This document shows positions 29,997 through 41,757 of a stretch of DNA of 64,000 bases, piece after piece. A program made the translations under genes and the position numbers. The notes below the pieces were generated by a model, which did no database searches, was not told where the DNA came from, and saw only the letters and a list, made by a program, of their open reading frames with translations. The DNA comes from Polyangiaceae bacterium (lineage in GTDB: Bacteria; Myxococcota_A; Polyangia; Polyangiales; Polyangiaceae): contig JANXOF010000053.1 of the NCBI GenBank assembly GCA_025353725.1, positions 62,001-126,000 on the forward strand. Reading direction: 5' to 3'. Positions within the stretch are counted from its first letter, which is position 1, and the number at the start of each line of letters is the position of its first letter.

Positions 29997-31277
29997 GTGC
30001 CGCGATTGCCAAAGCCGTCCGCAAGCCGTGCAGCGACTCCGTCGACCTCTCGCTCTCCAAGCGCGGTCGGGGGACCGATGCGAACCCCGCGCGCGCCCAA
30101 GTTAACGAGTGCAGTGGGCGGCAAGGGAGCCAACACGGAAGCCAGCGCACTCGGGCGCCCTCGCTCCGCGAGCACGGAGGCCGAAAGTTCGAAGGCATTA
30201 AGCTCGACCGCTGAAGCTTCGCACGAGCGCGGCGAGGACGATTCCGAGCCTGCGGTCGACGAGCACGACGGAGAACCGGACGCCGCCGGGCCCGAAGAGC
30301 AAGACGGTGAAGCCGCGTCCGAGGAGAACGAAGGCGCCGAAACGAACGGGCCCCGTGCCCAGCTGCGAACGCTCCCCTCACGCGGAGTGACCCGCGGGGC
30401 GAGTTCGTCGCCGGACAGGCTAGACCCCATGGCGGCCTACCTTCGCGAGGTCCAGCGACACCCACTGCTCTCTCCGGAAGAGACTCACACACTCGCGGCC
30501 TCGTTTGTCACGACGCAGGACCCCGCGCTGGCCGCGCGCCTTGTCACCGCGAACCTTAGGCTCGTGGTGAAGATCGCTTACGAGTATCGGCGCGCCTACC
30601 GAAACGTCATGGACCTCGTACAGGAGGGAAATATCGGCCTGATGCAGGCCGTGAAGCGCTACGATCCCTACCGCGGGGTGAAACTTTCCTCGTATGCCGC
30701 ATGGTGGATACGCGCCTACATTTTGAGGTTTATCCTCAACAATTGGCGCCTCGTAAAGCTCGGGACCACGCAGGCGCAACGAAAGCTGTTTTTCAATCTC
30801 CGCAAAAAGCGCGCGGAGCTCGTCGCGATGGGGATCGACCCGTCAAACGCGGAAATTGCGAAGCAACTCAACGTTCCCGAGAGCGACGTCGAAGAAATGG
30901 ACGTGCGGCTCGCGCAGAGCGAAAAATCTCTTGATGCTCCCGTGGGTGATGCCGACGGGCGAGCTGTCGCCAAGATTGATAGGATGCCCAGCGTCGGAGC
31001 AGGCCCCGAAGCGCTCATGGCCGACAACGAGCTTCAGGCACTTCTGAAGTCCAAGCTGAAAGACTTCCGAACAACGCTTGCGGGCCCCGGCAGCAAGGAG
31101 AAAGAGCGAGCTATTTTCGACCTGCGGCTTGTCGCCGACGACCCTCTCACACTCCAAGAACTGGGCGACCGCTTCGGCATCTCGCGCGAGCGCGTGCGCC
31201 AACTCGAACAGCGATTGCTCGGGCGCCTCCGCGACCACTTGAAACGCGAAATGGGTGACGCGACGGACTCGCTCTGA
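29997..31277 (+). CDS. RpoH-like sigma factor with acidic N-terminal extension
   Basis: 426 residues from a GTG; an ATG at 30078 is an alternative. Residues about 1-140 are a Ser/Ala-, Glu/Asp-rich extension (ASHERGEDDSEPAVDEHDGE). Region 2 follows: LVTANLRLVVKIAYEYRRAY, DLVQEGNIGLMQAVKRYDPY, YAAWWIRAYILRFIL. The sigma-32 hallmark NWRLVKLGTTQAQRKLFFNL is present. Region 4 ends with LTLQELGDRFGISRERVRQL. Several RpoH-like sigma factors are known in myxobacteria for heat shock or development. rsmI begins one base after the stop, so they are cotranscribed. Confidence 0.92.
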   Translation: MPRLPKPSASRAATPSTSRSPSAVGGPMRTPRAPKLTSAVGGKGANTEASALGRPRSASTEAESSKALSSTAEASHERGEDDSEPAVDEHDGEPDAAGPEEQDGEAASEENEGAETNGPRAQLRTLPSRGVTRGASSSPDRLDPMAAYLREVQRHPLLSPEETHTLAASFVTTQDPALAARLVTANLRLVVKIAYEYRRAYRNVMDLVQEGNIGLMQAVKRYDPYRGVKLSSYAAWWIRAYILRFILNNWRLVKLGTTQAQRKLFFNLRKKRAELVAMGIDPSNAEIAKQLNVPESDVEEMDVRLAQSEKSLDAPVGDADGRAVAKIDRMPSVGAGPEALMADNELQALLKSKLKDFRTTLAGPGSKEKERAIFDLRLVADDPLTLQELGDRFGISRERVRQLEQRLLGRLRDHLKREMGDATDSL

Positions 31278-31278
31278 C

Positions 31279-32127
31279 GTGGCGGGTGAGCTCTTCGTCG
31301 TCGCCACTCCCATCGGTAACCTAGCGGACCTCACACTTCGCGCGATTGAGGTGTTGAAGGCGAGTACGCGCGTCGCTGCGGAGGACACCCGACGAACGCG
31401 CCAACTTCTCTCGCATCTCGGCATTGAGGGAAAGCCGCTTGACGCGCTTCACGCCCATTCGAGCGACCGTGACGTAGCGCGACTGGTGGCGCGTCTCGAA
31501 GCAGGCGATTCGATAGCCCTCGTAACAGACGCCGGAACCCCCGCGGTGAGCGACCCGGGGGACGCCCTCGTGAAGGCCGCGATCACGGCGGGTGTCCGCA
31601 TCGTGCCTATTCCAGGCCCGAGCGCGGTGCTCGCCGCGTTGGTGGCGAGTGGACTCGCGAGCGGCGTTGGATTCCGTTTCGTCGGGTTCCTTCCGCGCGA
31701 GGGCGCGGCGCGGCGCGACGGTATCGCGACCGTCTGCGCGACGCCGGAGCCGGTCGTGCTCTTTGAGTCACCGGAGCGTACGCAGGCCACGCTCGCAGAG
31801 CTTGCCGACGCGATGCCGGACCGCCCCGCCTGCGTGGCACGTGAGCTCACGAAGCTTCACGAAGAGGTTGTACGCGGTTCGCTCGCAAGTCTCGCGAACG
31901 ACCGCGAGTCGTGGCGCGGCGAAGTCGCGATTGTGCTCGGAGCGTGGTCGCGTGAAGCGAACGCGGAACACATTGACGCCGCCGCGATCGACGAGCGCAT
32001 CGAGCGAGAGCTCGTAACCGGTGCGCACGCTAAGACCATCGCCGACGCGATTGCAGCCTGGTCCGGACGACCGCGACGCGAAGTCTACGAGCGCGTCGTT
32101 CGCCTCAAGTCTGCACGGCGTACTTAG
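31279..32127 (+). CDS. rsmI: 16S rRNA (cytidine-1402 2'-O) methyltransferase
   Basis: About 282 residues from a GTG one base after the sigma-factor stop. SAM-dependent 2'-O-methylation of C1402 in 16S rRNA. The start GELFVVATPIGNLADLTLRA, AEDTRRTRQLLSHLGI, TDAGTPAVSDPG and PGPSAVLAALVASGL are diagnostic of RsmI. The C-terminal extension is complete (KTIADAIAAWSGRPRREVYE). Pairing with an RpoH-like sigma factor is unusual but may be positional only. Confidence 0.94.
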   Translation: MAGELFVVATPIGNLADLTLRAIEVLKASTRVAAEDTRRTRQLLSHLGIEGKPLDALHAHSSDRDVARLVARLEAGDSIALVTDAGTPAVSDPGDALVKAAITAGVRIVPIPGPSAVLAALVASGLASGVGFRFVGFLPREGAARRDGIATVCATPEPVVLFESPERTQATLAELADAMPDRPACVARELTKLHEEVVRGSLASLANDRESWRGEVAIVLGAWSREANAEHIDAAAIDERIERELVTGAHAKTIADAIAAWSGRPRREVYERVVRLKSARRT

Positions 32128-32359: not shown

Positions 32360-33820
32360 ATGTCTGAAGGGCCCTCAGAGTTTGGCGAGTCGCTGTTCGA
32401 CCTCCTCGTTTCTGGGGAGTCGACGCTCGCCACGGTATCGCTTACGCCGGGGAAAACGTACGGCGTGGGTCGAGACTCGACCTGCTCCATCGTGGTCGAC
32501 GACCCCTCCGTCTCGAGGTTTCATGCGGAATTGACCGTGGGTCTCGTGCCGACAATCACGGACCTCGGTAGCCGAAACGGCACGGTCGTAGGCGGAGTGC
32601 GGCTCAAGCGCGATGTACCCACGCCCGTCGTCGTCGGAGGCCTCGTCACAGTCGGTCGCGCCACGCTCGTCCTGCAGCAGCCCCGCTTGAAGGCACGCAC
32701 AGTTTCAAATACGATGGTGCCGGCGCCACTTTCCGCGCCGCCGACTGCGGACACCGTCGTGTTCGACCCGGTGATGAAGAACCTCTACGCCATGCTCGAC
32801 ATCGTCGCGCCGGCTCCCATCTCCGTGCTTATTCTTGGCGAGACTGGCGTGGGCAAAGAGGTGTTTGCGGCAGAGGTTCACAGGCGGTCGACCCGATCGG
32901 CCGAGCGGTTCCTTGCGCTCAACTGCGCGGCGATGCCAGAGTCCATGCTCGAAGCCGAGCTTTTCGGTTACGAACGAGGCGCATTTACGGGCGCAGTTCA
33001 ATCAAAACCGGGACTTTTCGAGTCCGCCGACCGGGGCACGGTACTGCTCGACGAACTCGGCGATATGGCACTTGCCACACAAGCAAAGCTACTTCGAGTT
33101 CTTGAAGTCGGAGAAGTCTTGCGGCTCGGTAGCTTGGTGCCGCGGCGGGTCAATATTCGTTTTATCGCGGCGACCAACCGCGACCTCGAGCAAGCCATCC
33201 GCGCGGGCGCGTTCCGGGCCGACCTCTTTTTTCGCCTCAACGGTATCACCTTCACCCTGCCTCCCCTGCGCGACCGTCGGCTCGACATTGTCCCCTTGGC
33301 CGAGTTCTTCATCGCGCGCGCGTTGGCGCGGACAAACCGCCAAGCCCTCCGGATGAGCCCCGAATTCATCTCTAAAATAGAGAGGGCGTCGTGGCCGGGA
33401 AATGTCCGCGAGCTGCGCAACGTCATCGAGCGTGCCGTCGTCCTTTGCCAAGAAGCCGAGCTTCTGGAGAGCCATGTTGTCGGTTTATCCACACAGAGTT
33501 CGTCGCTCAACGTGCCCTCTACAGAACGAGATCGCTCAAGCTTCAACGTCAGCGAGACCGGCACAGTGTCAAGCTTTCAAGGAGGTCTTGCGTCGTTAGC
33601 GGAGGTCGGAGAAGCCTACGAAACGCACGTCTCGCAAAGCGGAAACCTGCTCGACGCGGTACGCGTCCTCGAGCGCCAGCGGATCACGAATGCGCTCCAA
33701 GCGTGCGGCGGAAATCAGAGTAGGACGGCGAAAATGCTTGGTATTGCGAGGGCAACACTGCTTGCTCGGCTCGACGAATTTGGACTTGCGCGACCTCGGA
33801 AGCGACCGGCCGCACCATGA
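32360..33820 (+). CDS. FHA-domain sigma54-dependent transcription activator
   Basis: About 486 residues from the ATG at 32360. FHA domain (about 30-105): GRDSTCSIVV, SRFHAEL, SRNGT, the phosphothreonine-binding residues. AAA+ domain: Walker A GETGVGKE near 160-167, the sigma54-contacting loop GAFTGA, Walker B TVLLDELGDM. A Fis-type helix-turn-helix ends the protein (NQSRTAKMLGIARATLLARL). With FHA instead of a receiver domain, the activator should respond to Ser/Thr phosphorylation. The kinase gene overlaps its stop by 4 bp, so the two are translationally coupled. Confidence 0.93.
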   Translation: MSEGPSEFGESLFDLLVSGESTLATVSLTPGKTYGVGRDSTCSIVVDDPSVSRFHAELTVGLVPTITDLGSRNGTVVGGVRLKRDVPTPVVVGGLVTVGRATLVLQQPRLKARTVSNTMVPAPLSAPPTADTVVFDPVMKNLYAMLDIVAPAPISVLILGETGVGKEVFAAEVHRRSTRSAERFLALNCAAMPESMLEAELFGYERGAFTGAVQSKPGLFESADRGTVLLDELGDMALATQAKLLRVLEVGEVLRLGSLVPRRVNIRFIAATNRDLEQAIRAGAFRADLFFRLNGITFTLPPLRDRRLDIVPLAEFFIARALARTNRQALRMSPEFISKIERASWPGNVRELRNVIERAVVLCQEAELLESHVVGLSTQSSSLNVPSTERDRSSFNVSETGTVSSFQGGLASLAEVGEAYETHVSQSGNLLDAVRVLERQRITNALQACGGNQSRTAKMLGIARATLLARLDEFGLARPRKRPAAP

Positions 33821-35232
33821 ACAGCAGCGACGAGACACTCCTTCTCCCGCCCACGGAACCGATGGCCGCGGACGGACTGCAGGACGAGTTGGGCCCCGGG
33901 ACGCGCGTGGGCGGCTACGAAGTCGTCGTCCGTATTGCCCAAGGTGGGTGCGGCTCCGTCTACGAGGCCGTGCACGGGATTCATGGGACGCGCGTGGCCA
34001 TCAAGCTTTTGCGGAAGGACTTTGCCGAGTCGCGCGAAATGGTTGAGCGATTCATCCTCGAAGCGCGCGCGGTAAACCTAATTAGACACCCCAATATTGT
34101 CGACATTTTCGAATTTGGGATCACGGAGGATGGTCAGCCGTACCACGTGATGGAGATGCTCGAAGGAACGGGCCTCGACCGAAGGGTGCGGGACCGAGGC
34201 AGGCTCGACGAAGCTGAAGTTCTCGAAATTCTCGAACCCTTAGGCGCCGCGCTGAGTGCTGCGCATAGCCACGGCGTCGTCCACCGCGATCTCAAGCCGA
34301 GCAACATCGTCGTCTCGGCCGTGGCCGATGGATTACGCGTTACCGTGGTCGACTTCGGAATCGCAAAGCTGCTGGATGTGCCCGAGGGACAGGCCGGACT
34401 GACGGCCGTGGGGAGGAAGTTGGGAACCCCCGTATCGATGGCGCCCGAGCAGATTCTAGGCGTCGGAGTTACCCATCTCGCCGACGTCTACGCGACCGGC
34501 GTGCTCCTGTTTTTTTGCCTTACGGGTCGCTTCCCTTTCAAGTTCCGCTCACCGCAGGAACTGGAACACGCGCACCTCGCCATACCGCCACCCGCGCCGA
34601 GCAGCGTAGCGCCGGTGTCACCCGGAATCGACGCGCTCGTCCAGCGTTGCATGGCCAAAGACCCGCGCGCACGATTCCAAAGTATGGACGCCGTAGTTCA
34701 AGCATTTCGCGGCGAAATTCTCGTTCGCAAACAAAGCACTAAGGCCACGCTCGCGAAGGAAGCCGTGGCCATGTATGTCGATGTGGAGTCGAGTTTCGAA
34801 ACCGAGGACGGCGAGGACAGCGAGAACGACGAGTTCGCCATCCTCGACGACGCGGCCTCGGTCATCGAACGGGTCGAGCAGGATCTCACCGCATGGGGCT
34901 GGGAAATTGCCGTCCGAACAACCTCCGTTGTACTCGGTGTCAGGTTTTCGGATTCGGACGGAGAGAGCTCGGATGGGCCGGCAACGTTACGCGCGGCGGC
35001 GGCTCTAGCTCAGGCGCTTGCGGAGTCTCTCACTCGGCGCGCGGCTGCAAATAAGGCGAACAAAGTCACGCTCGCCGTGCGGCTCGACAGTGCACTCGAG
35101 AACGTCGACGCCGCGGGTAAGAGATTTCTCACGGGCCCCCTACTACGCGTCCACACATGGTGCTCTGACGTAGCGATCCCAGACGTGCGGGTGAGCGGCA
35201 AGCACGATGCTCCTCCGCAGGACGAGACCTGA
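33817..35232 (+). CDS. Ser/Thr protein kinase coupled to the FHA-sigma54 activator
   Basis: 471 residues. Kinase motifs: IAQGGCGSVYEAVHG, AIKLLRKD, VVHRDLKPSNIV, VVDFGIAKLL, SMAPEQILG; all catalytic residues appear intact. The C-terminal 150 residues (after about 320) form an unrecognised, non-membrane region containing ETEDGEDSENDEF and an Ala-rich helical stretch; no transmembrane segment was seen. The overlap with the FHA-activator gene suggests it phosphorylates that protein or a common partner. Confidence 0.9.
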   Translation: MNSSDETLLLPPTEPMAADGLQDELGPGTRVGGYEVVVRIAQGGCGSVYEAVHGIHGTRVAIKLLRKDFAESREMVERFILEARAVNLIRHPNIVDIFEFGITEDGQPYHVMEMLEGTGLDRRVRDRGRLDEAEVLEILEPLGAALSAAHSHGVVHRDLKPSNIVVSAVADGLRVTVVDFGIAKLLDVPEGQAGLTAVGRKLGTPVSMAPEQILGVGVTHLADVYATGVLLFFCLTGRFPFKFRSPQELEHAHLAIPPPAPSSVAPVSPGIDALVQRCMAKDPRARFQSMDAVVQAFRGEILVRKQSTKATLAKEAVAMYVDVESSFETEDGEDSENDEFAILDDAASVIERVEQDLTAWGWEIAVRTTSVVLGVRFSDSDGESSDGPATLRAAAALAQALAESLTRRAAANKANKVTLAVRLDSALENVDAAGKRFLTGPLLRVHTWCSDVAIPDVRVSGKHDAPPQDET

Positions 35233-35390
35233 CAACCTGCACACGATCTGGACTCAAGGGACAAGCGTCAGGCTGGCTGTCAGACCCATAGCGCCGCGGT
35301 TCGGGCATTTCCAACCTGGCATCAAGGGTGCAGCTCCGGCTTCGTCCGCTTCGAACCTGAGTCTAAGAGGAACATGTCGAATCACTCCAC

Positions 35391-35420
35391 GTCCCGCAGT
35401 GTCCCGCAGTGTCCCGCAGT
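35391..35420 (+). repeat. Tandem repeat, three copies of GTCCCGCAGT
   Basis: Perfect 10-bp repeat in three copies. Because 10 is not a multiple of three, each copy gain or loss shifts frame. It spans the apparent start of the decayed lipoprotein gene (GTG at 35409). Confidence 0.9.
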
Positions 35421-35692
35421 TCTCGCGCGCTTCAGTTCGGTCTTGCGGCATTTGTCATGACGGTCGCCGTGGCAGGCTGTTCCGAGCAGAATTCGGAAGC
35501 TCATCGAGCTGGGCTGCGAGTACCACACAGCCGCGTAAGCGGGCGAACGTAATGTACACACTTCTCGCGGACGCCAAACCAAGTGGAGCGGCTTGCCGTG
35601 GGTCCTACGAGTGTCGCGGTGGAAACTGCGACGCGCCGCGCGGGGAAGCTCAGGGCGTATGCAGCAACGGCTGGTACGGTAATACCAACTAG
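35409..35692 (+). pseudogene. Frame-shifted Cys-rich lipoprotein gene (putative)
   Basis: From the GTG at 35409 the frame reads a lipoprotein signal: SSRALQFGLAAFVMTVAVAGC, lipobox VAGC, then SEQNSEAH, and stops soon after. In another forward frame the end of the region encodes GAACRGSYECRGGNCDAPRG and GVCSN, a typical small Cys-rich repeat ending with a stop at 35692. The two halves look like one small lipoprotein split by a frameshift. A sequencing error is the alternative. Confidence 0.4.
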
Positions 35693-35758
35693 TCCACAGA
35701 TTCGCGAGAGAAGCTCTGCACGCGATACGCGCTGGAGAGAAGCTTCCGATCCCGAGAG

Positions 35759-38700
35759 ATGCGTGCGACCATCGTCGGTGTGCGATGTACGCAATGCGGG
35801 AGGAGAGCGCGAAGCGTTTTTTCGAGTGTTTGTTCCGTCCACGCTGTCGGTTTGGTCAGCGGCGACGAACGCGCGCGTGGGTTTTCACCACCGCGGCTCG
35901 GCCCATCGTTTCGCAGTTGGGCGGTGGTTAAGACCTTAGGCCACGGAGGGTTCGGCTCGGTTTATCTCGCGACCGGCGACCAAAGCGGTCGTTTGGTCGC
36001 GCTCAAAGTCGCTTTCGACAGCGACGAGGCACGCGAGCAACTCCGGCGTGAGGCAGCGGTGCTTACGGGCCTCGAAGGAGTCGGCGCCCCGCGTGTCCTG
36101 CACGACTCAAGCTCCGAAGACGTGCCGTTCCTGGTCACCGAACTTATCCCCGGCGTGGGCCTCGACGAGGCCATGGCCGACGGTTCGGTCGTTCCGGGCC
36201 CAAACGCCGTGAAAATAGGCCGAGCGTTGGTTCGCGCGGTCTACGAGCTCCACCGCGCGGGCGTCGCGCACGGCGACCTTAAGCCAGAAAACGTGCTTGT
36301 CGAAGCCGACGTTTGTCGTCTCATTGACTTCGGGCTCGCGCGACGCACCGGGACGGTCGCCGCCCCCGAGGGCGCAGTCACCACGACCCAAACCGCGTTC
36401 GACCGCGTCGTAGGAACGGCCGAATACATGGCTCCCGAACTCGAGGCAGGGGGTCGGCCCATCGACGAGCGAAGCGACGTCTACGCCTTGGGCGCCATCC
36501 TTTTCGAGCTGGTCAGCGGACGACCTCCATTTTTTGGGTCCGGAACCGACGTTCGGCTGGGTCATAGGGCGCAACGGGTGCGCGGCCATGCGCTACGCGA
36601 CGTGCCGTCCGGGATGCGCACTGCGATTCTCCGGGCGCTCGAAAAAAACCCGGTCGAACGATTTCCTTCGGCCGTCGAAATGGCGGACGCCCTCGATGGC
36701 TCCGTCTCACTACTCCCTCCTCCGCCCACGTCGGTGCGGGGTACCGGCCTCGAAGTCCCGACAGGGCGAATTCTCGTGGCCTCCGGGTCACGCGCGCTTG
36801 TCGCCCTGCTCGCCGTCGCAGAAGACCGCGCCACCGAAAACCTCACGGCACTCGTTGAAGCGCGATGGGGCGAGCTCGTGGCTAAACGCGCCAACTGCTT
36901 GGTTTTTGCATGGCCCGCGCGGGCGGCGCGCCACCCCGTAGAAGCGGCCGTCGCTTGCGCGCGCGAGCTGCTTGCGAGCGGCGCGTTGCCAAGAGCGCTC
37001 GTCGATTTCGGATACCTCTCGATGAGTCAACGGGCGGGCGGGCGCACGGCGTACGGAGGCCCGTTGCTCGGGTCCGTCACGAAAGGGTGTGCCGCGCTCG
37101 ACACGGACGGCGTGAGCCTAACCGCCGCCGCGGTCGACGCCTCGCGATTCGCGTCTGGGCGCTCGCCAACATCGAGCGCACCGCGTCATGTGGTCCAGCC
37201 GTTAGACGTGCTCGAGGCCGAGCAAGGCCGGCTTGTCGAGCCTGAACTCCTCGAGCGCGCGCGCACACTCGCGGCCATCGACGTCGCCGCCGTGGCGAGT
37301 CGCGGCGGCCCCGCTCATCTCGTCACGGTGATAGGCGGCGCCGGTGTGGGGAAGAGCGCCATCGTTCGCGCGCTCGAGCGACGCCTCGCGGACAGGACGG
37401 TAAACGTCCTTCAGGGCCGGAGCTCCGAAGACGTTTCGCTCCGAGCGTTTCTCGCGCTCCTTGGTGGCCTTTCCGAGGTCGCCCCAGCGGCCGAAATCGC
37501 CTCGGCTTTGGCTGAAAAGGCTGACCTGTCAACGCGTGAAACGCACCTTGCGGCCTGCGTCCTAGGTCTTGGCGCCAGTGACGCCCTCGACCTTCCCGCC
37601 CACGGTTTTCGCGCAGCTCTGGCTGAACTCATCGTCAAACTCATTCTGCTTCCGGGCATGCCACCGACCGCCCTCCTCGTGGACGATGCGCATCTCTTGC
37701 CGCCAGTCTTGCTCGACGTCTTGGAGCTCGTCACAACGGCCGGCGTCAACGCGCCGCTTCTTGTCGTCGTCGCGGCGCTCCCTTCGTTTGAGCGCTCTCG
37801 ACCGGCCTGGAGTTTACGCGCGTCGGCGTGCGTCCGCGTCGAACTCGAAGCACTCTCGGCGGAGGCCGCGATGCAGCTCGCGGCGACGCTGCTTCAACCC
37901 GCCGATCAGGTGCCCGAAGAAGCTCTCCTGCGGCTCGCCGAGCGGGCGGACCACAACCCGCGCGCACTGACGGAGCTCGTGGCATTCCTAAAACGCAGCA
38001 AAGGCGTTCGAAAGCGCGGAACAGGAGGCGCGTATTACCTCGCCCTCGAGGTACTCGCGCAGCTTCCGGACAGGTCGCGAGAGGAATGGCTCGCCGAGGA
38101 GCAGATACAGGGCCTCGCCGCACCGCTGGCGACGCTGGCAAGTGCGCTCGCGGCTCTCGGAGCGCGCGCCTTACGCACCACGATCGACGCCTATTTCGAC
38201 GATCTCGACGCGACGGGGCTCGGGGTGGAACTGACCCTCGATCTCAGCGTCGGATTGCGGTGCCTCTTAGAGGAGGGCATCCTCGAGGGTGATCCGCGAG
38301 GGGCGATCGCGTTCCGCACGCCGTTTCATCGTCACGCGTTGTTGGGTCGTCTCGACCCTGCTTTCCGTGCGGGACTTTACGAAACCGCGTACCGAACGAC
38401 CCGCCATGTGGTTTCACTCGATGACGCCGGAGCGTGCGAGCAACTCGCGGAACTTGCCGCCGCGTGCAGCCGGACGGACGAAGCCATAGCGCTGCTGGAT
38501 CGCGTTCTGCTCGCTCGCTCGCGAACGGCAGACTTCGTCGCCCTCGAACGCGCATGTTCGCGCTACCTGGAGCTTGCGAGCGCCAGCCCGGCGTTGCCGA
38601 CCGCGTCGGTCTTGCGAAAAAGGGCTATCGCTCGCGTCCGAACGGAGCGCGTCGAAGACGCAAGCCGTGACTTACTGGAGGCCCGTGAGCGAGCGAAAGC

Positions 38701-39727
38701 GACCGGCGATCGGGAGGAAGAAGCACGGGCGCTGCTCGACCACGCGCTCGCACTCGACCGCCTCGGCGAGTACCCGCGCGCAGCCGAGCTGGTGAACCAA
38801 GCCGTCGTGGTCGCCAAGGACCTTCCGAGCGATCTGCTCGGCGCCGAGTTCGAACTCGCACGCGGTCTCATCGAGTGTCGAACCAACGCGATGCCGACGG
38901 CTATCTTCTACATAGAAGAGGCAATACGTCGCGCGTCCGTCGACGCCGCAGCCCACTACGAGGCTCTTATTTTCGCACGCGTCATGCTTCCGTATCTCTA
39001 TGCTGGGCTCGCGCGACTCGACGAGGCAGAGCGTGCGTTCGAAGAGGCCGACCGGTTCGCGATAGCCAGCGGAGACGCGGATCGCGCCTGCTCGAACGCG
39101 TACAATCGTCATCTTCTCGACGCCGCACGGCACGATTATGCAAGCTACAAACAGACGCTGACCCGGGCGAGTGAGCTCTCTGCGCGGCATGGCCTTGCCT
39201 CCGTGCTCGTTCTTGCGCTCGGCGCACTGGCGATAGGGCTCATTCAAAATCGGGATCTCGACGAAGCCGACCGGTGCCTTACGCGAGCGCGCCGTGTAGC
39301 GCTCCACATTGGAGCGGCCATGCGCCTCTTTATCGTCGGCCTCGAGGCCCGTTGCAGCTTCTTCGGGGGCGATGAACCCGCCGCGCGCGAACGTCTTCTA
39401 GAAATGCGCTCGGAGATAGCGAGCGGTAGCGCGCTCTCCGCTGACTACGCACGCACGATGGTCGACGCCCTCGACCTCGCACTCGAACGAGCGCCCGCGG
39501 ACTCTTGGGAACGCCTCATCGCCGAGGTAACCTTACTCAATCCGCCAGAAGACGTCCTTGACGTGCTTCTGCTTCGGGCTGAAGCCGAGCGTCGTTCAGG
39601 GACGCCCGAGGCTGCTCTTCGAACGTTGGAGCGGGCTCTCGAGACGGCTTCGGTGACGCCCAACGTGGCTCGCGATTTCCTTCGCGAAGAGACGATTCAA
39701 CTCAGGACGAAGTTGTTTACGGCTTGA
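35759..39727 (+). CDS. Giant Ser/Thr kinase with cyclase-like, AAA ATPase and TPR-like regions
   Basis: 1322 residues. The N-terminus has a possible zinc knuckle (CTQCGRRARSVFSSVCSVHA, residues 10-29). Kinase: Gly loop GHGGFGSVYLA near 61, Lys83 in VALKV, catalytic loop AHGDLKPENV (HGD rather than HRD), DFG in LIDFGLARR, APE in EYMAPELEAG. About 345-470 resembles a degenerate nucleotide-cyclase-like domain. A signalling NTPase follows: Walker A VIGGAGVGKS near 525, Walker B ALLVDDAH near 640. The last 600 residues are helical repeats of TPR type. Such PknK-like architectures integrate signals in myxobacteria. It overlaps the convergent OPT gene by 31 bp. Confidence 0.87.
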   Translation: MRATIVGVRCTQCGRRARSVFSSVCSVHAVGLVSGDERARGFSPPRLGPSFRSWAVVKTLGHGGFGSVYLATGDQSGRLVALKVAFDSDEAREQLRREAAVLTGLEGVGAPRVLHDSSSEDVPFLVTELIPGVGLDEAMADGSVVPGPNAVKIGRALVRAVYELHRAGVAHGDLKPENVLVEADVCRLIDFGLARRTGTVAAPEGAVTTTQTAFDRVVGTAEYMAPELEAGGRPIDERSDVYALGAILFELVSGRPPFFGSGTDVRLGHRAQRVRGHALRDVPSGMRTAILRALEKNPVERFPSAVEMADALDGSVSLLPPPPTSVRGTGLEVPTGRILVASGSRALVALLAVAEDRATENLTALVEARWGELVAKRANCLVFAWPARAARHPVEAAVACARELLASGALPRALVDFGYLSMSQRAGGRTAYGGPLLGSVTKGCAALDTDGVSLTAAAVDASRFASGRSPTSSAPRHVVQPLDVLEAEQGRLVEPELLERARTLAAIDVAAVASRGGPAHLVTVIGGAGVGKSAIVRALERRLADRTVNVLQGRSSEDVSLRAFLALLGGLSEVAPAAEIASALAEKADLSTRETHLAACVLGLGASDALDLPAHGFRAALAELIVKLILLPGMPPTALLVDDAHLLPPVLLDVLELVTTAGVNAPLLVVVAALPSFERSRPAWSLRASACVRVELEALSAEAAMQLAATLLQPADQVPEEALLRLAERADHNPRALTELVAFLKRSKGVRKRGTGGAYYLALEVLAQLPDRSREEWLAEEQIQGLAAPLATLASALAALGARALRTTIDAYFDDLDATGLGVELTLDLSVGLRCLLEEGILEGDPRGAIAFRTPFHRHALLGRLDPAFRAGLYETAYRTTRHVVSLDDAGACEQLAELAAACSRTDEAIALLDRVLLARSRTADFVALERACSRYLELASASPALPTASVLRKRAIARVRTERVEDASRDLLEARERAKATGDREEEARALLDHALALDRLGEYPRAAELVNQAVVVAKDLPSDLLGAEFELARGLIECRTNAMPTAIFYIEEAIRRASVDAAAHYEALIFARVMLPYLYAGLARLDEAERAFEEADRFAIASGDADRACSNAYNRHLLDAARHDYASYKQTLTRASELSARHGLASVLVLALGALAIGLIQNRDLDEADRCLTRARRVALHIGAAMRLFIVGLEARCSFFGGDEPAARERLLEMRSEIASGSALSADYARTMVDALDLALERAPADSWERLIAEVTLLNPPEDVLDVLLLRAEAERRSGTPEAALRTLERALETASVTPNVARDFLREETIQLRTKLFTA

Positions 39728-41757
39728 ACGAGAACTCCGACGATGCTCTCTCCCGCAATGCCACCGGCCGCGATGGCGACGACATAGCGCTCAGCCCATG
39801 CCTTGTTTGCGGCGGTCGCGAACGCACCGAGCGCCGCGCCCATGAACATCGCGAGCGGATAGAAAAACGGAAGCACCATGCCGAGTCCAAGCCCCGTTGG
39901 AGAGGGCACCCAGTTTCGGTACCGCTTCGGCACAGTGAGCTCCGTCAGCGAGAGGAGAGCCCCGACCGCCAAGCCCACCTTAATGGCACTTTGCGACATC
40001 GGATGGAGGTTTCCGAGGCCATACTTGAAGACCTCGGCCACGGCCTTCCACTGCTGGGCACCGGGCGCTGGAAACGTCGGAGCCTTGAGATCACTGCCGA
40101 GCAACACGCTCGCGTCCGGAACGAGGATAAAAAAGCAAAGCGTGGTCGCAACCGTGCCCGTGAGGATCCCCGCGGCTTGGGCGGCGAACTGCCGGCGAGG
40201 ATTTGCCCCGAGCAAATAGCCACATTTCAAGTCATTCAGAAGGTCGGCACTGGAGAGCGACGCGCTCGCCGTGATCGCTGCAGTCTGCAGGTTTGCCGTC
40301 GAGCTCTGCGGAATGAGCACGCCGTACGTAAGCTGCATGATTTTTCCGAATGGGCCGCCAGGCGTGATGTCGGTCTCGCCGGTAGCGCGGCAAGCTACGA
40401 CGGCGAGCAAAAAGGTCATGGCGACCGCAAGGAGCCCAAGGTGAATAGGAATCTCGAAATAAACCCGCGCAACCACAATGACGCCCGAGCCGGCGAAAAG
40501 CATTCCGAATGCGAACCAACGCATCGGAACCTCGACGTCGCGGACGCGCCTCGCGGCCTCCAGTTCGCTGGGACTGAAGGTCTTCTTTCGCCCTGGCAGC
40601 AAGGCCTCGATGGCCCTTACCACCGTGCGCCACTGAGCGAGAAACGCGACGATACCGCTCGAGACGAGCATCGGGGCTCCCGTCCAAATGCCGATCTCCT
40701 TCCAGGCACTCCCGGGCTTGGTCACGGCCCCGACGGTGGCGCCGAGCGCATTTGTCCACATGGAATCCATCGCCGGAGGCGCAAGAAAGACGTTGAGAAA
40801 CAAGCCTCCCAGCACCATCCATCCGGTGATCCGTAGCCCAATGAGGATACCCGCGAAGACAAGCGCCACGCCGTGATCGAGTTGAATGTGAAAGTCGCTC
40901 AACTGAAAAGGAGCGCCATTCGTGTGAAGCTTCGAAGGGCCCGCCGTGAGCATCCGGTGGGTCCACGACTCCGGAAGCACGTTCGTAAGGCCGTCAAAGA
41001 GATTCGATTGACCAGGGATAAGCGTATCGCGGAGCGCTTTTCCGGACTTCGGGTCGACGCCCACTTTCTTGATATTAAGGTCTTTCAAAAGCGGAACGAG
41101 TCCTGAGAACGCCAGCGCCGCGAAAAGAACACGCGCGCGCTTTAGGGCTTCCGCGCCGTTGCTATAGAGGCCTTGCAGCGTGACGGCAGCGGCCGTCCCC
41201 GAGGGAAACTTCAGCTTTTCACGATTGATCATCGAGCGCTTCATCGGGATCGCGAGCACGACCCCGAGTCCTGCGACGAAGAAGATCCACATCGCGACGA
41301 CGGACCAAGGGATGTGGCGGCCTCCCGGTGCGTCCGTCGAGATCGAGAGAAGGAGCATCGCGGGAAGGGCAGTAATCGTCAAAAACCCTGTCGCGTAACC
41401 GGCGGAAGACGCGGTCGAGACGGCCGATGTGCTTTCGAGAATCGACAAGCGAGTCTTCGCGAGGCCGAACCGTTGGAGAGAGCTCCAAACGGCATAACTG
41501 AGCACGCACGCCGTGAGGTTGACGCCGAGAAACCAGCCCGTTTTCAGACCAATATAGACGTTCGTGAACGCCAGAAAGAACCCGAGGGCACTGCCCAAAA
41601 GTACAGCCCGCCGCGTGAACTGAGGCGCATTCCTTCGATAGGCTCGCGCATACCATTCGGCTTCGTCCATGAGCGCCACCTCCTCCGGCGGGATGGCAAG
41701 AGGCTTGCTAGCGTCGTGTTCTTCGGCGGTGCGCGCAGGCTGTTCAAAGAAGCTCAC
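39697..41757 (-). CDS. OPT-family oligopeptide/metal-complex transporter
   Basis: 686 residues with roughly 14-16 hydrophobic segments. FTRRAVLLGSALGFFLAFTN near the N-terminus, KLKFPSGTAAAVTLQGLYS and ATGETDITPGGPFGKIMQL are characteristic of the OPT superfamily (prokaryotic, COG1297 type). Import of small peptides or siderophore complexes driven by proton flow is the family function; the substrate here is unknown. It lies 20 bp after a CDP-alcohol phosphatidyltransferase gene on the same strand. Confidence 0.9.
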   Translation of the reverse strand: MSFFEQPARTAEEHDASKPLAIPPEEVALMDEAEWYARAYRRNAPQFTRRAVLLGSALGFFLAFTNVYIGLKTGWFLGVNLTACVLSYAVWSSLQRFGLAKTRLSILESTSAVSTASSAGYATGFLTITALPAMLLLSISTDAPGGRHIPWSVVAMWIFFVAGLGVVLAIPMKRSMINREKLKFPSGTAAAVTLQGLYSNGAEALKRARVLFAALAFSGLVPLLKDLNIKKVGVDPKSGKALRDTLIPGQSNLFDGLTNVLPESWTHRMLTAGPSKLHTNGAPFQLSDFHIQLDHGVALVFAGILIGLRITGWMVLGGLFLNVFLAPPAMDSMWTNALGATVGAVTKPGSAWKEIGIWTGAPMLVSSGIVAFLAQWRTVVRAIEALLPGRKKTFSPSELEAARRVRDVEVPMRWFAFGMLFAGSGVIVVARVYFEIPIHLGLLAVAMTFLLAVVACRATGETDITPGGPFGKIMQLTYGVLIPQSSTANLQTAAITASASLSSADLLNDLKCGYLLGANPRRQFAAQAAGILTGTVATTLCFFILVPDASVLLGSDLKAPTFPAPGAQQWKAVAEVFKYGLGNLHPMSQSAIKVGLAVGALLSLTELTVPKRYRNWVPSPTGLGLGMVLPFFYPLAMFMGAALGAFATAANKAWAERYVVAIAAGGIAGESIVGVLVQAVNNFVLS

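What the first reader, a model, noticed from the sequence alone, without database searches (positions are those of the whole stretch)
32360..39727. Ser/Thr-phosphorylation island with FHA-sigma54 activator
An FHA-type sigma54 activator overlaps a Ser/Thr kinase gene by 4 bp, and about 0.5 kb on lies a 1322-residue kinase with ATPase and TPR modules. The FHA domain replaces the usual receiver domain, so phosphothreonine made by one of these kinases may control sigma54 transcription. The giant kinase could be the upstream integrator.
Basis: partly seen in the sequence, partly recalled or inferred. Interest (0 to 1): 0.5.

Follow-up and report, generated by a model that had tools for sequence, protein, structure and literature searches.

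The report
Two-kinase module with sigma54 phospho-reader
A myxobacterial genome carries a pair of protein kinases of a kind that travels together across many myxobacteria, here joined to a gene switch with a phosphate-reading domain, where Myxococcus xanthus has a phosphate-reading sensor kinase beside the related pair.

Summary
In detail: an FHA-sigma54 activator (32360-33820) overlaps a Ser/Thr kinase gene (33817-35232) by 4 bp, and 526 bp on lies a 1322-aa kinase-AAA-TPR protein (35759-39727). Comparison adds much. The two kinases are a true pair: 56 of 60 'giants' with enough flank have a small kinase of this type within 5.5 kb, and the two co-evolve (Mantel r 0.93; 0.92 among seven paralogous pairs of one genome). 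Both carry a degenerate class III cyclase fold. In M. xanthus such a giant lies at espA, which encodes an FHA hybrid histidine kinase, and a paper says PktA5, with a partner kinase and EspB, may contact EspA. FHA-sigma54 activators stand beside the pair in other genera too; the window's is from a different activator lineage. Best reading: an Esp/Pkt-like two-kinase module whose FHA output is a sigma54 activator. Phosphothreonine binding, promoters and signal are inferred. 31 of 60 giants have no FHA activator or EspA nearby, so the FHA link is looser than the kinase link. New variant of a known kind.

The parts
32360..33820 (+). FHA-type sigma54 enhancer-binding protein (FHA - AAA+ - Fis HTH)
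   Evidence: ATG at 32360; GAFTGA loop and FHA GR / SRFH / NG residues read in the translation (motif meaning recalled)
32465..32656 (+). FHA domain
   Evidence: Pfam PF00498 55 bits; 59 bits in the genome search
32765..33250 (+). Sigma54_activat AAA+ domain
   Evidence: PF00158 209 bits
33659..33781 (+). Fis-type HTH
   Evidence: PF02954 47 bits
33817..35232 (+). small Ser/Thr kinase, RD type (HRDLKPSN), 4-bp overlap with the activator gene
33916..34695 (+). kinase domain of the small kinase
   Evidence: PF00069
34729..35229 (+). degenerate class III cyclase-like domain of the small kinase
   Evidence: AF2 pLDDT 83.2; the 50 listed Foldseek hits are class III cyclases or cyclase-like; homologous to the giant's middle domain, hhalign E 4.4e-6
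35233..35758 (.). 526-bp gap with broken lipoprotein-like reading frames
   Evidence: by eye
35759..39727 (+). giant Ser/Thr kinase, non-RD (HGDLKPEN): zinc ribbon - kinase - cyclase-like - AAA_16 - TPR
35783..35842 (+). N-terminal Cys-rich (zinc-ribbon-like) segment, CxxC...CxxH in the window
   Evidence: R9 C10 C13 R16 C25 invariant in the 12 giants aligned; the fourth ligand varies; zinc binding is inferred
35921..36661 (+). kinase domain of the giant
   Evidence: PF00069 126 bits
36764..37213 (+). degenerate class III cyclase-like domain of the giant
   Evidence: AF2 pLDDT 84.8; Foldseek best 1ybt E 2.1e-5, TM 0.58
37247..37768 (+). AAA_16 ATPase domain
   Evidence: PF13191 43 bits; G529 G531 K532 invariant in the 12 giants aligned
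38336..39688 (+). TPR region
   Evidence: TPR_12 38 bits at residues 948-1016; outer boundaries by eye
39697..41757 (-). OPT oligopeptide transporter, convergent with the giant, 31-bp overlap; EspB-like in family and place, orthology open
   Evidence: PF03169 251 bits; 36% identity over 295 aa to the OPT of the Myxococcus espA-type locus L102; close orthologues in relatives away from the kinase pair

Best explanation
The locus is a two-kinase signalling module of the PktA5/PktB8 (Esp) kind whose FHA output is a sigma54 activator instead of the FHA histidine kinase EspA. The small RD kinase and the giant non-RD kinase act as one unit, perhaps held together through their degenerate cyclase-like domains; the giant's Cys-rich segment, AAA ATPase and TPR region receive the signal. 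The active pair makes phosphothreonine, on the kinases or on the activator. The FHA domain of the probably co-translated activator binds it, which recruits or derepresses the AAA+ domain and switches sigma54 promoters. Shown here by computation: domain make-up, pairing, co-evolution, the shared cyclase-like fold, and repeated association with FHA proteins. Inferred: phosphorylation, binding, promoters and direction of signal.
For: Giant-small pairing 56 of 60; Mantel r 0.935 over 67 pairs and 0.92 (p 0.0018) among seven paralogous pairs of one genome. Within 5.5 kb of the giant: FHA activator 14 of 60, EspA-like FHA kinase 15 of 60, against an FHA activator within 6 kb of 15 of 148 other kinases of this genome. 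Different gene orders: activator-small-giant in the window; giant-small then convergent activator in Myxococcus, 0-7 bp apart in seven loci; activator-giant in G175 (L203); giant-activator in L072. A single clade of linked activators is rejected (AU p 7e-5; post hoc), so the association arose more than once or the activator was exchanged. EspA named above cut-off in M. xanthus L103 (1547 against 1400 bits). Giants at the espA-type loci are non-RD like the window's (HCD or HGD in 17 of 18). [quoted passage not shown] This genome has rpoN and no EspA over cut-off.
Against: 31 of 60 giants have neither an FHA activator nor an EspA-like gene within 5.5 kb. The Fisher p for FHA activators is only 0.025, related loci are counted separately, and the control uses a different genome and a slightly different distance. 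Activators most like the window's have a same-strand kinase in the 1.5-kb flank in only 5 of 29 loci. No sigma54-site excess. The module is rare near home: no giant in the 11 same-genus genomes; 25 of 183 genomes of the order match at E 1e-60, seven of them only weakly with frames of about 900 aa. Giant and small trees place the window differently: giant with the half that holds the activator-linked giants (99), small beside the EspA-linked clade (89); both branches are long.
Confidence: 0.6

Rival explanations
1. The activator and the small kinase form one pathway and the giant serves another output, or the activator's place beside the pair is mere neighbourhood in a kinase-rich genome.
For: Kinases and FHA domains are dense here; 31 of 60 giants lack an FHA activator or EspA-like gene nearby; the activator's nearest paralogue (C81, L077) overlaps by 4 bp a different kinase that lacks the cyclase-like domain.
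Against: The giant-small pair is seldom split (56 of 60) and co-evolves, so a partner of the small kinase is likely a partner of the giant; FHA genes recur next to the pair in several orders.
Confidence: 0.22
2. The kinases control the activator by phosphorylating it directly, and its FHA domain serves assembly within the activator rather than contact with the kinases.
For: FHA domains can bind within their own protein (general knowledge); nothing here fixes the sign of control.
Against: Another FHA protein with a different output domain (EspA) recurs next to the same pair, which points to the FHA domain as the shared contact.
Confidence: 0.12
3. The kinase pair is part of an anti-phage or other conflict system.
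For: The small kinase matches a PADLOC PD-T4-6 model over nearly its whole length (351 bits, residues 3-451); STAND-like proteins occur in conflict systems (general knowledge).
Against: 34 and 33 PADLOC models match the two kinases, so the matches are unspecific; relatives sit at the espA locus. No effector gene was sought systematically.
Confidence: 0.06

Closest known systems
espAB locus of Myxococcus xanthus with its flanking kinases pktA5 and pktB8
   Same: Small RD kinase plus giant non-RD kinase, an OPT gene convergent with the giant, and an FHA-domain signalling protein. That the small kinase is PktA5, the giant PktB8 and the OPT gene espB is my inference from order and from recall of Stein et al. 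2006 (only its title seen).
   Different: The FHA protein here is a sigma54 activator, not the hybrid histidine kinase EspA (none over cut-off in this genome); gene order differs; the window's OPT may be an older resident.
Giant kinase - small kinase - FHA activator loci L130, L136, L137, L140, L145, L148 (Myxococcus), L152, L157 (Pyxidicoccus), L161 (Archangium), L156 (record titled Comamonas)
   Same: The same three protein types in one locus.
   Different: Activator convergent, 0-7 bp from the small kinase in seven of the ten and 0.5-3.3 kb away in the other three, and from another activator lineage; no OPT gene found.
FHA-containing enhancer-binding proteins of M. xanthus (Jelsbak et al. 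2005, title seen in a reference list)
   Same: FHA - AAA+ - HTH architecture.
   Different: Here overlapping a kinase gene with a cyclase-like domain and near a giant kinase; whether that paper reports kinase neighbours was not checked (not held).
TOMM system kinase/cyclase fusion protein (TIGR03903)
   Same: Kinase, cyclase and further modules in one long protein; partial matches.
   Different: Far below cut-off (75 bits for the window giant, cut-off 705.75); TOMM genes were not sought.
Class III nucleotidyl cyclases (e.g. Rv1900c CHD, CyaC, CyaB)
   Same: Fold of the small kinase C-terminus and the giant middle domain, TM-scores mostly 0.45-0.6.
   Different: No Asp, Glu, Lys, Arg or Asn among the columns conserved at 90% in either family alignment: presumably not enzymes.

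Membership tests
FHA-type sigma54 enhancer-binding protein | FHA domain in place of a receiver domain | tested here: met
   FHA 55 bits, no Response_reg match
FHA-type sigma54 enhancer-binding protein | AAA+ domain with GAFTGA loop, and a Fis-type HTH | tested here: met
   loop read in the translation
FHA-type sigma54 enhancer-binding protein | a sigma54 factor in the same genome | tested here: met
   Sigma54_DBD 217 bits
FHA-type sigma54 enhancer-binding protein | activation of sigma54 promoters under control of a Ser/Thr kinase | not testable with these tools
   needs an experiment; the site scan showed no excess
Esp/Pkt system (espAB, pktA5, pktB8) | paired small RD kinase and giant non-RD kinase | tested here: met
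   HRDLKPSN and HGDLKPEN in the window; espA-type giants non-RD in 17 of 18
Esp/Pkt system (espAB, pktA5, pktB8) | EspA hybrid histidine kinase | tested here: not met
   none over cut-off in the genome, best 188 bits against 1400 (assembly 97.55% complete); the FHA role is held by a sigma54 activator
Esp/Pkt system (espAB, pktA5, pktB8) | OPT transporter (EspB) convergent with the giant | tested here: inconclusive
   right family and place, but orthologues of this OPT live in relatives away from the pair
class III nucleotidyl cyclase | cyclase fold | tested here: met
   AF2 and Foldseek for both domains
class III nucleotidyl cyclase | conserved catalytic residues | tested here: not met
   no Asp, Glu, Lys, Arg or Asn among columns conserved at 90% in A3 or A4
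TOMM kinase/cyclase fusion (TIGR03903) | score above the curated cut-off | tested here: not met
   75 against 705.75 bits
PD-T4-6 anti-phage kinase | specific full-length match | tested here: inconclusive
   351 bits to one model, but 34 PADLOC models match the small kinase; no phage test

The most novel reading that the evidence does not exclude
Across Myxococcota a two-kinase unit, one small and one giant kinase joined by a heterodimer of dead cyclase domains, is a portable signal processor that plugs into exchangeable FHA readers: a histidine kinase (EspA) in some lineages and sigma54 activators of at least two separate lineages in others. This would be a Ser/Thr counterpart of the swappable histidine kinase - response regulator pair.
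Probability: 0.3. Interest if true: 0.7.

Novelty: new variant of a known kind. Interest (0 to 1): 0.52.

Why it matters
Which of the hundred or more Ser/Thr kinases of a myxobacterium talk to which output is largely unknown. If this reading holds, gene order and co-evolution give a wiring rule: a paired-kinase unit, recognisable by matching cyclase-like domains, wired to an FHA protein where one is linked. It would tie the little-explained PktA5/PktB8 kinases of M. xanthus development to sigma54 transcription in other species, and would let FHA-sigma54 activators be tested with defined kinase partners.

Tried and rejected
Sigma54 promoters: 81 sites with up to 3 mismatches against 95.8 expected, so no support; the one 1-mismatch site (41694) was not followed. 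The sigma70 and terminator scan gave nothing useful.

In-genome statistics alone: FHA activators are not significantly nearer to kinases than other activators (Fisher p 0.07-0.30 at 1.5-4 kb).

OPT transporter as proof of an Esp locus: weakened, because orthologues at 54-80% identity occur in relatives away from the kinase pair. A kinase-like ORF lies in 6 of the 11 loci read. Ten of these 11 genomes have no giant at E 1e-60; G024 has giants elsewhere.

Horizontal acquisition by base composition: GC and GC3 of the three genes are like their neighbours'.

Single origin of linked activators: rejected with the window included (AU p 7e-5), not rejected without it (p 0.34). Both groups were named after the tree was seen. 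The background was 14 of the 17 other FHA activators of the window's own genome, no other species.

Enzymatic cyclase activity: not pursued, because catalytic residues are not conserved.

Choices that may bias: the giant profile A5 was built from the window and 11 of 13 relative loci; the two left out (L074, L075) have no small kinase beside them, so the scan may favour paired giants. The scan kept the best 80 of 124 (79 loci). Rows dropped: giants under 1200 aa, or over 1600 aa except L072, in the giant tree (89 rows); of 86 distinct giants of 1200 aa or more, the 26 with under 5.5 kb of flank; small kinases outside 380-700 aa (67 of 72 kept). The window and the loci are not in the count.
Full report
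Observation. The activator has FHA, sigma54 AAA+ and Fis HTH domains and no receiver match; the 1322-residue kinase has kinase, AAA_16 and TPR parts. Catalytic loops read HRDLKPSN in the small and HGDLKPEN in the giant kinase, RD and non-RD types. The genome is a 6.6-Mb, 98-contig assembly with 152 kinase-domain matches (150 listed), 46 sigma54-activator domains of good score (of 52 matches), 18 of them with FHA in front, and one rpoN. It groups with Polyangiaceae-like genomes: G014 is identical in its giants to a Byssovorax record.

The two kinases are a unit. A search of 58 genomes, own included, found the best giant outside the window's genome and the only other match to the small kinase's C-terminus on one contig of G014. 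Of 13 giant loci read in three genomes, 11 have a small kinase of the same type beside the giant, mostly divergent. A named-genome scan gave 79 more loci, from Myxococcus, Corallococcus, Pyxidicoccus, Archangium, Hyalangium, Citreicoccus, Sorangium, Polyangium, Minicystis, Byssovorax, Anaeromyxobacter and some MAGs (the best 80 of 124 kept). Of 86 distinct giants, 60 have at least 5.5 kb on both sides, and 56 of these have the small kinase within 5.5 kb. Where one of each was found the pair is divergent in 40 and tandem in 30 loci. Distances among giants and among their small partners agree (Mantel r 0.935, 67 pairs, p 0.0002). Within one genome's seven paralogous pairs, where species history cannot explain it, r is 0.92 (p 0.0018); in five pairs of a Sorangium strain 0.91 (p 0.009).

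Shared cyclase-like domain. Pfam finds nothing after the kinase domain of the small kinase. Family alignments of its C-terminus and of the giant's segment between kinase and AAA match each other by profile comparison over 100 columns (E 4.4e-6 for this one comparison, probability 87%, identity 13%). Both fold confidently (pLDDT 83.2 and 84.8). The 50 structure matches listed for each are class III nucleotidyl cyclases or proteins of that fold, with E-values near 1e-5 to 1e-4 and TM-scores mostly 0.45-0.6. No Asp, Glu, Lys, Arg or Asn is conserved at 90% in either alignment. Class III cyclases work as dimers (established knowledge), so a contact between the two kinases through these domains is a natural but untested guess.

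FHA partners. In 18 of 92 giant loci a protein like L086:13255-15537 stands with the pair; two of them, scanned with Pfam, are FHA-PAS-PAS-histidine kinase-receiver. These 18 loci are Myxococcaceae, Archangiaceae and one record titled Comamonas. In M. xanthus strain AM003 (L103) NCBIfam names it EspA, 1547 bits against a cut-off of 1400. All 18 have an OPT gene next to and convergent with the giant; the OPT gene was found in 25 of the 92 loci, none of them activator-linked. Seventeen of the 18 have the small kinase; in L103 the contig ends first. Their giants are non-RD in 17 of 18. This fits the espAB locus flanked by pktA5 and pktB8 (Stein et al. 2006: title in a reference list, details recalled). 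PMC4320627 (passages seen) says PktA5 appears to act with PktA8 [sic] and EspB and that the complex may interact with EspA.

In 15 of the 92 loci the FHA gene is a sigma54 activator: six Myxococcus, two Pyxidicoccus, one Archangium, the Comamonas-titled record, three Sorangium, one Polyangium and one from G029. It lies within 100 bp of one of the two kinases in 10 of the 15 and up to 3.4 kb away in the rest. One more is L203 of G175. With adequate flank: activator 14 of 60, EspA-like 15 of 60, either 29 of 60, neither 31 of 60. Control: 15 of 148 other kinases of the window's genome have an FHA activator within 6 kb, domain to domain; Fisher p 0.025, with related loci counted separately.

More than one activator lineage. 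In a tree of 32 FHA activators (window, 14 others of its genome, 17 linked ones) the window's falls with three of its own genome, nearest the C81 one (95), away from the Myxococcus-Archangium clade (100) and the Sorangium-Polyangium clade (100). Holding all linked activators together is rejected (AU p 7e-5); without the window it is not (p 0.34); both tests are post hoc. So at least two activator lineages stand beside this kind of pair. The giant tree puts the window with the half that holds all activator-linked giants (99), the small-kinase tree beside the EspA-linked clade (89), both on long branches; I draw no conclusion on descent. Activators most like the window's have a same-strand kinase in the 1.5-kb flank in only 5 of 29 loci, so a kinase neighbour is not general for this activator type.

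The window's fourth gene. The OPT transporter at 39697-41757 overlaps the giant's end, as in M. xanthus L103 (giant to 11073, OPT from 11066). It is 36% identical over 295 residues to the OPT of L102. This genome has two OPT genes, which makes chance adjacency unlikely. But orthologues at 54-80% identity occur in relatives, and none of the 11 loci read shows a giant beside the OPT gene, so the gene may be older than the module. Membership of the Esp system stays open, and EspA itself is absent.

Mechanism. The most economical reading is a paired-kinase unit that marks threonines, read by an overlapping FHA-sigma54 activator, as EspA's FHA domain may do in M. xanthus. Domain facts and associations are computed; phosphorylation, binding, sign and targets are inferred. 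No sigma54-site excess was seen in the window.

Novelty. Searches of the held library listed no paper whose title or shown abstract start describes a giant-small kinase pair with exchangeable FHA outputs; most subscription papers, including the two most relevant, are not held. I rate it a new variant of a known kind.

Noticed in passing
window 35233-35758: Between the two kinase genes lie broken frames that look like a lipoprotein signal and a separate Cys-rich piece: perhaps a decayed lipoprotein gene.
   Followed up: partly
L066:11538-12509 -, and similar in L067, L070, L109, L114, L115, L118, L121, L123, L124, L128, L132: In Polyangiaceae a lipoprotein-like protein with runs of NALxP-type pentapeptides lies directly upstream of the giant kinase on its strand; function unknown, possibly the module's sensor.
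   Followed up: partly
L077:7319-10071 - (own genome C81): The nearest paralogue of the activator also overlaps a kinase gene by 4 bp, but that kinase has a C-terminal hydrophobic stretch (by eye) and no cyclase-like domain.
   Followed up: partly
L242, L243, L245, L249: Orthologues of the window's OPT transporter stand just after Ser/Thr kinase genes on the same strand in four relatives, as if OPT genes and kinases were linked more widely.
   Followed up: partly
L089, L156: Records titled Comamonas sp. KCTC 72670 carry Myxococcus-like espA-type and giant kinase loci; probably a mislabelled genome.
   Followed up: no
window 29997-32127: A sigma70-family factor gene overlaps an rsmI-like gene just upstream of the activator.
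   Followed up: no
window 41694-41709: A sigma54-type site with one mismatch (TGGCAAGAGGCTTGCT) inside the start of the OPT gene, on the opposite strand.
   Followed up: no
window 33817-35232: The small kinase matches a PADLOC PD-T4-6 model over residues 3-451 (351 bits), so that model seems to cover kinases with the cyclase-like C-terminus and may mislabel them as defence genes.
   Followed up: no
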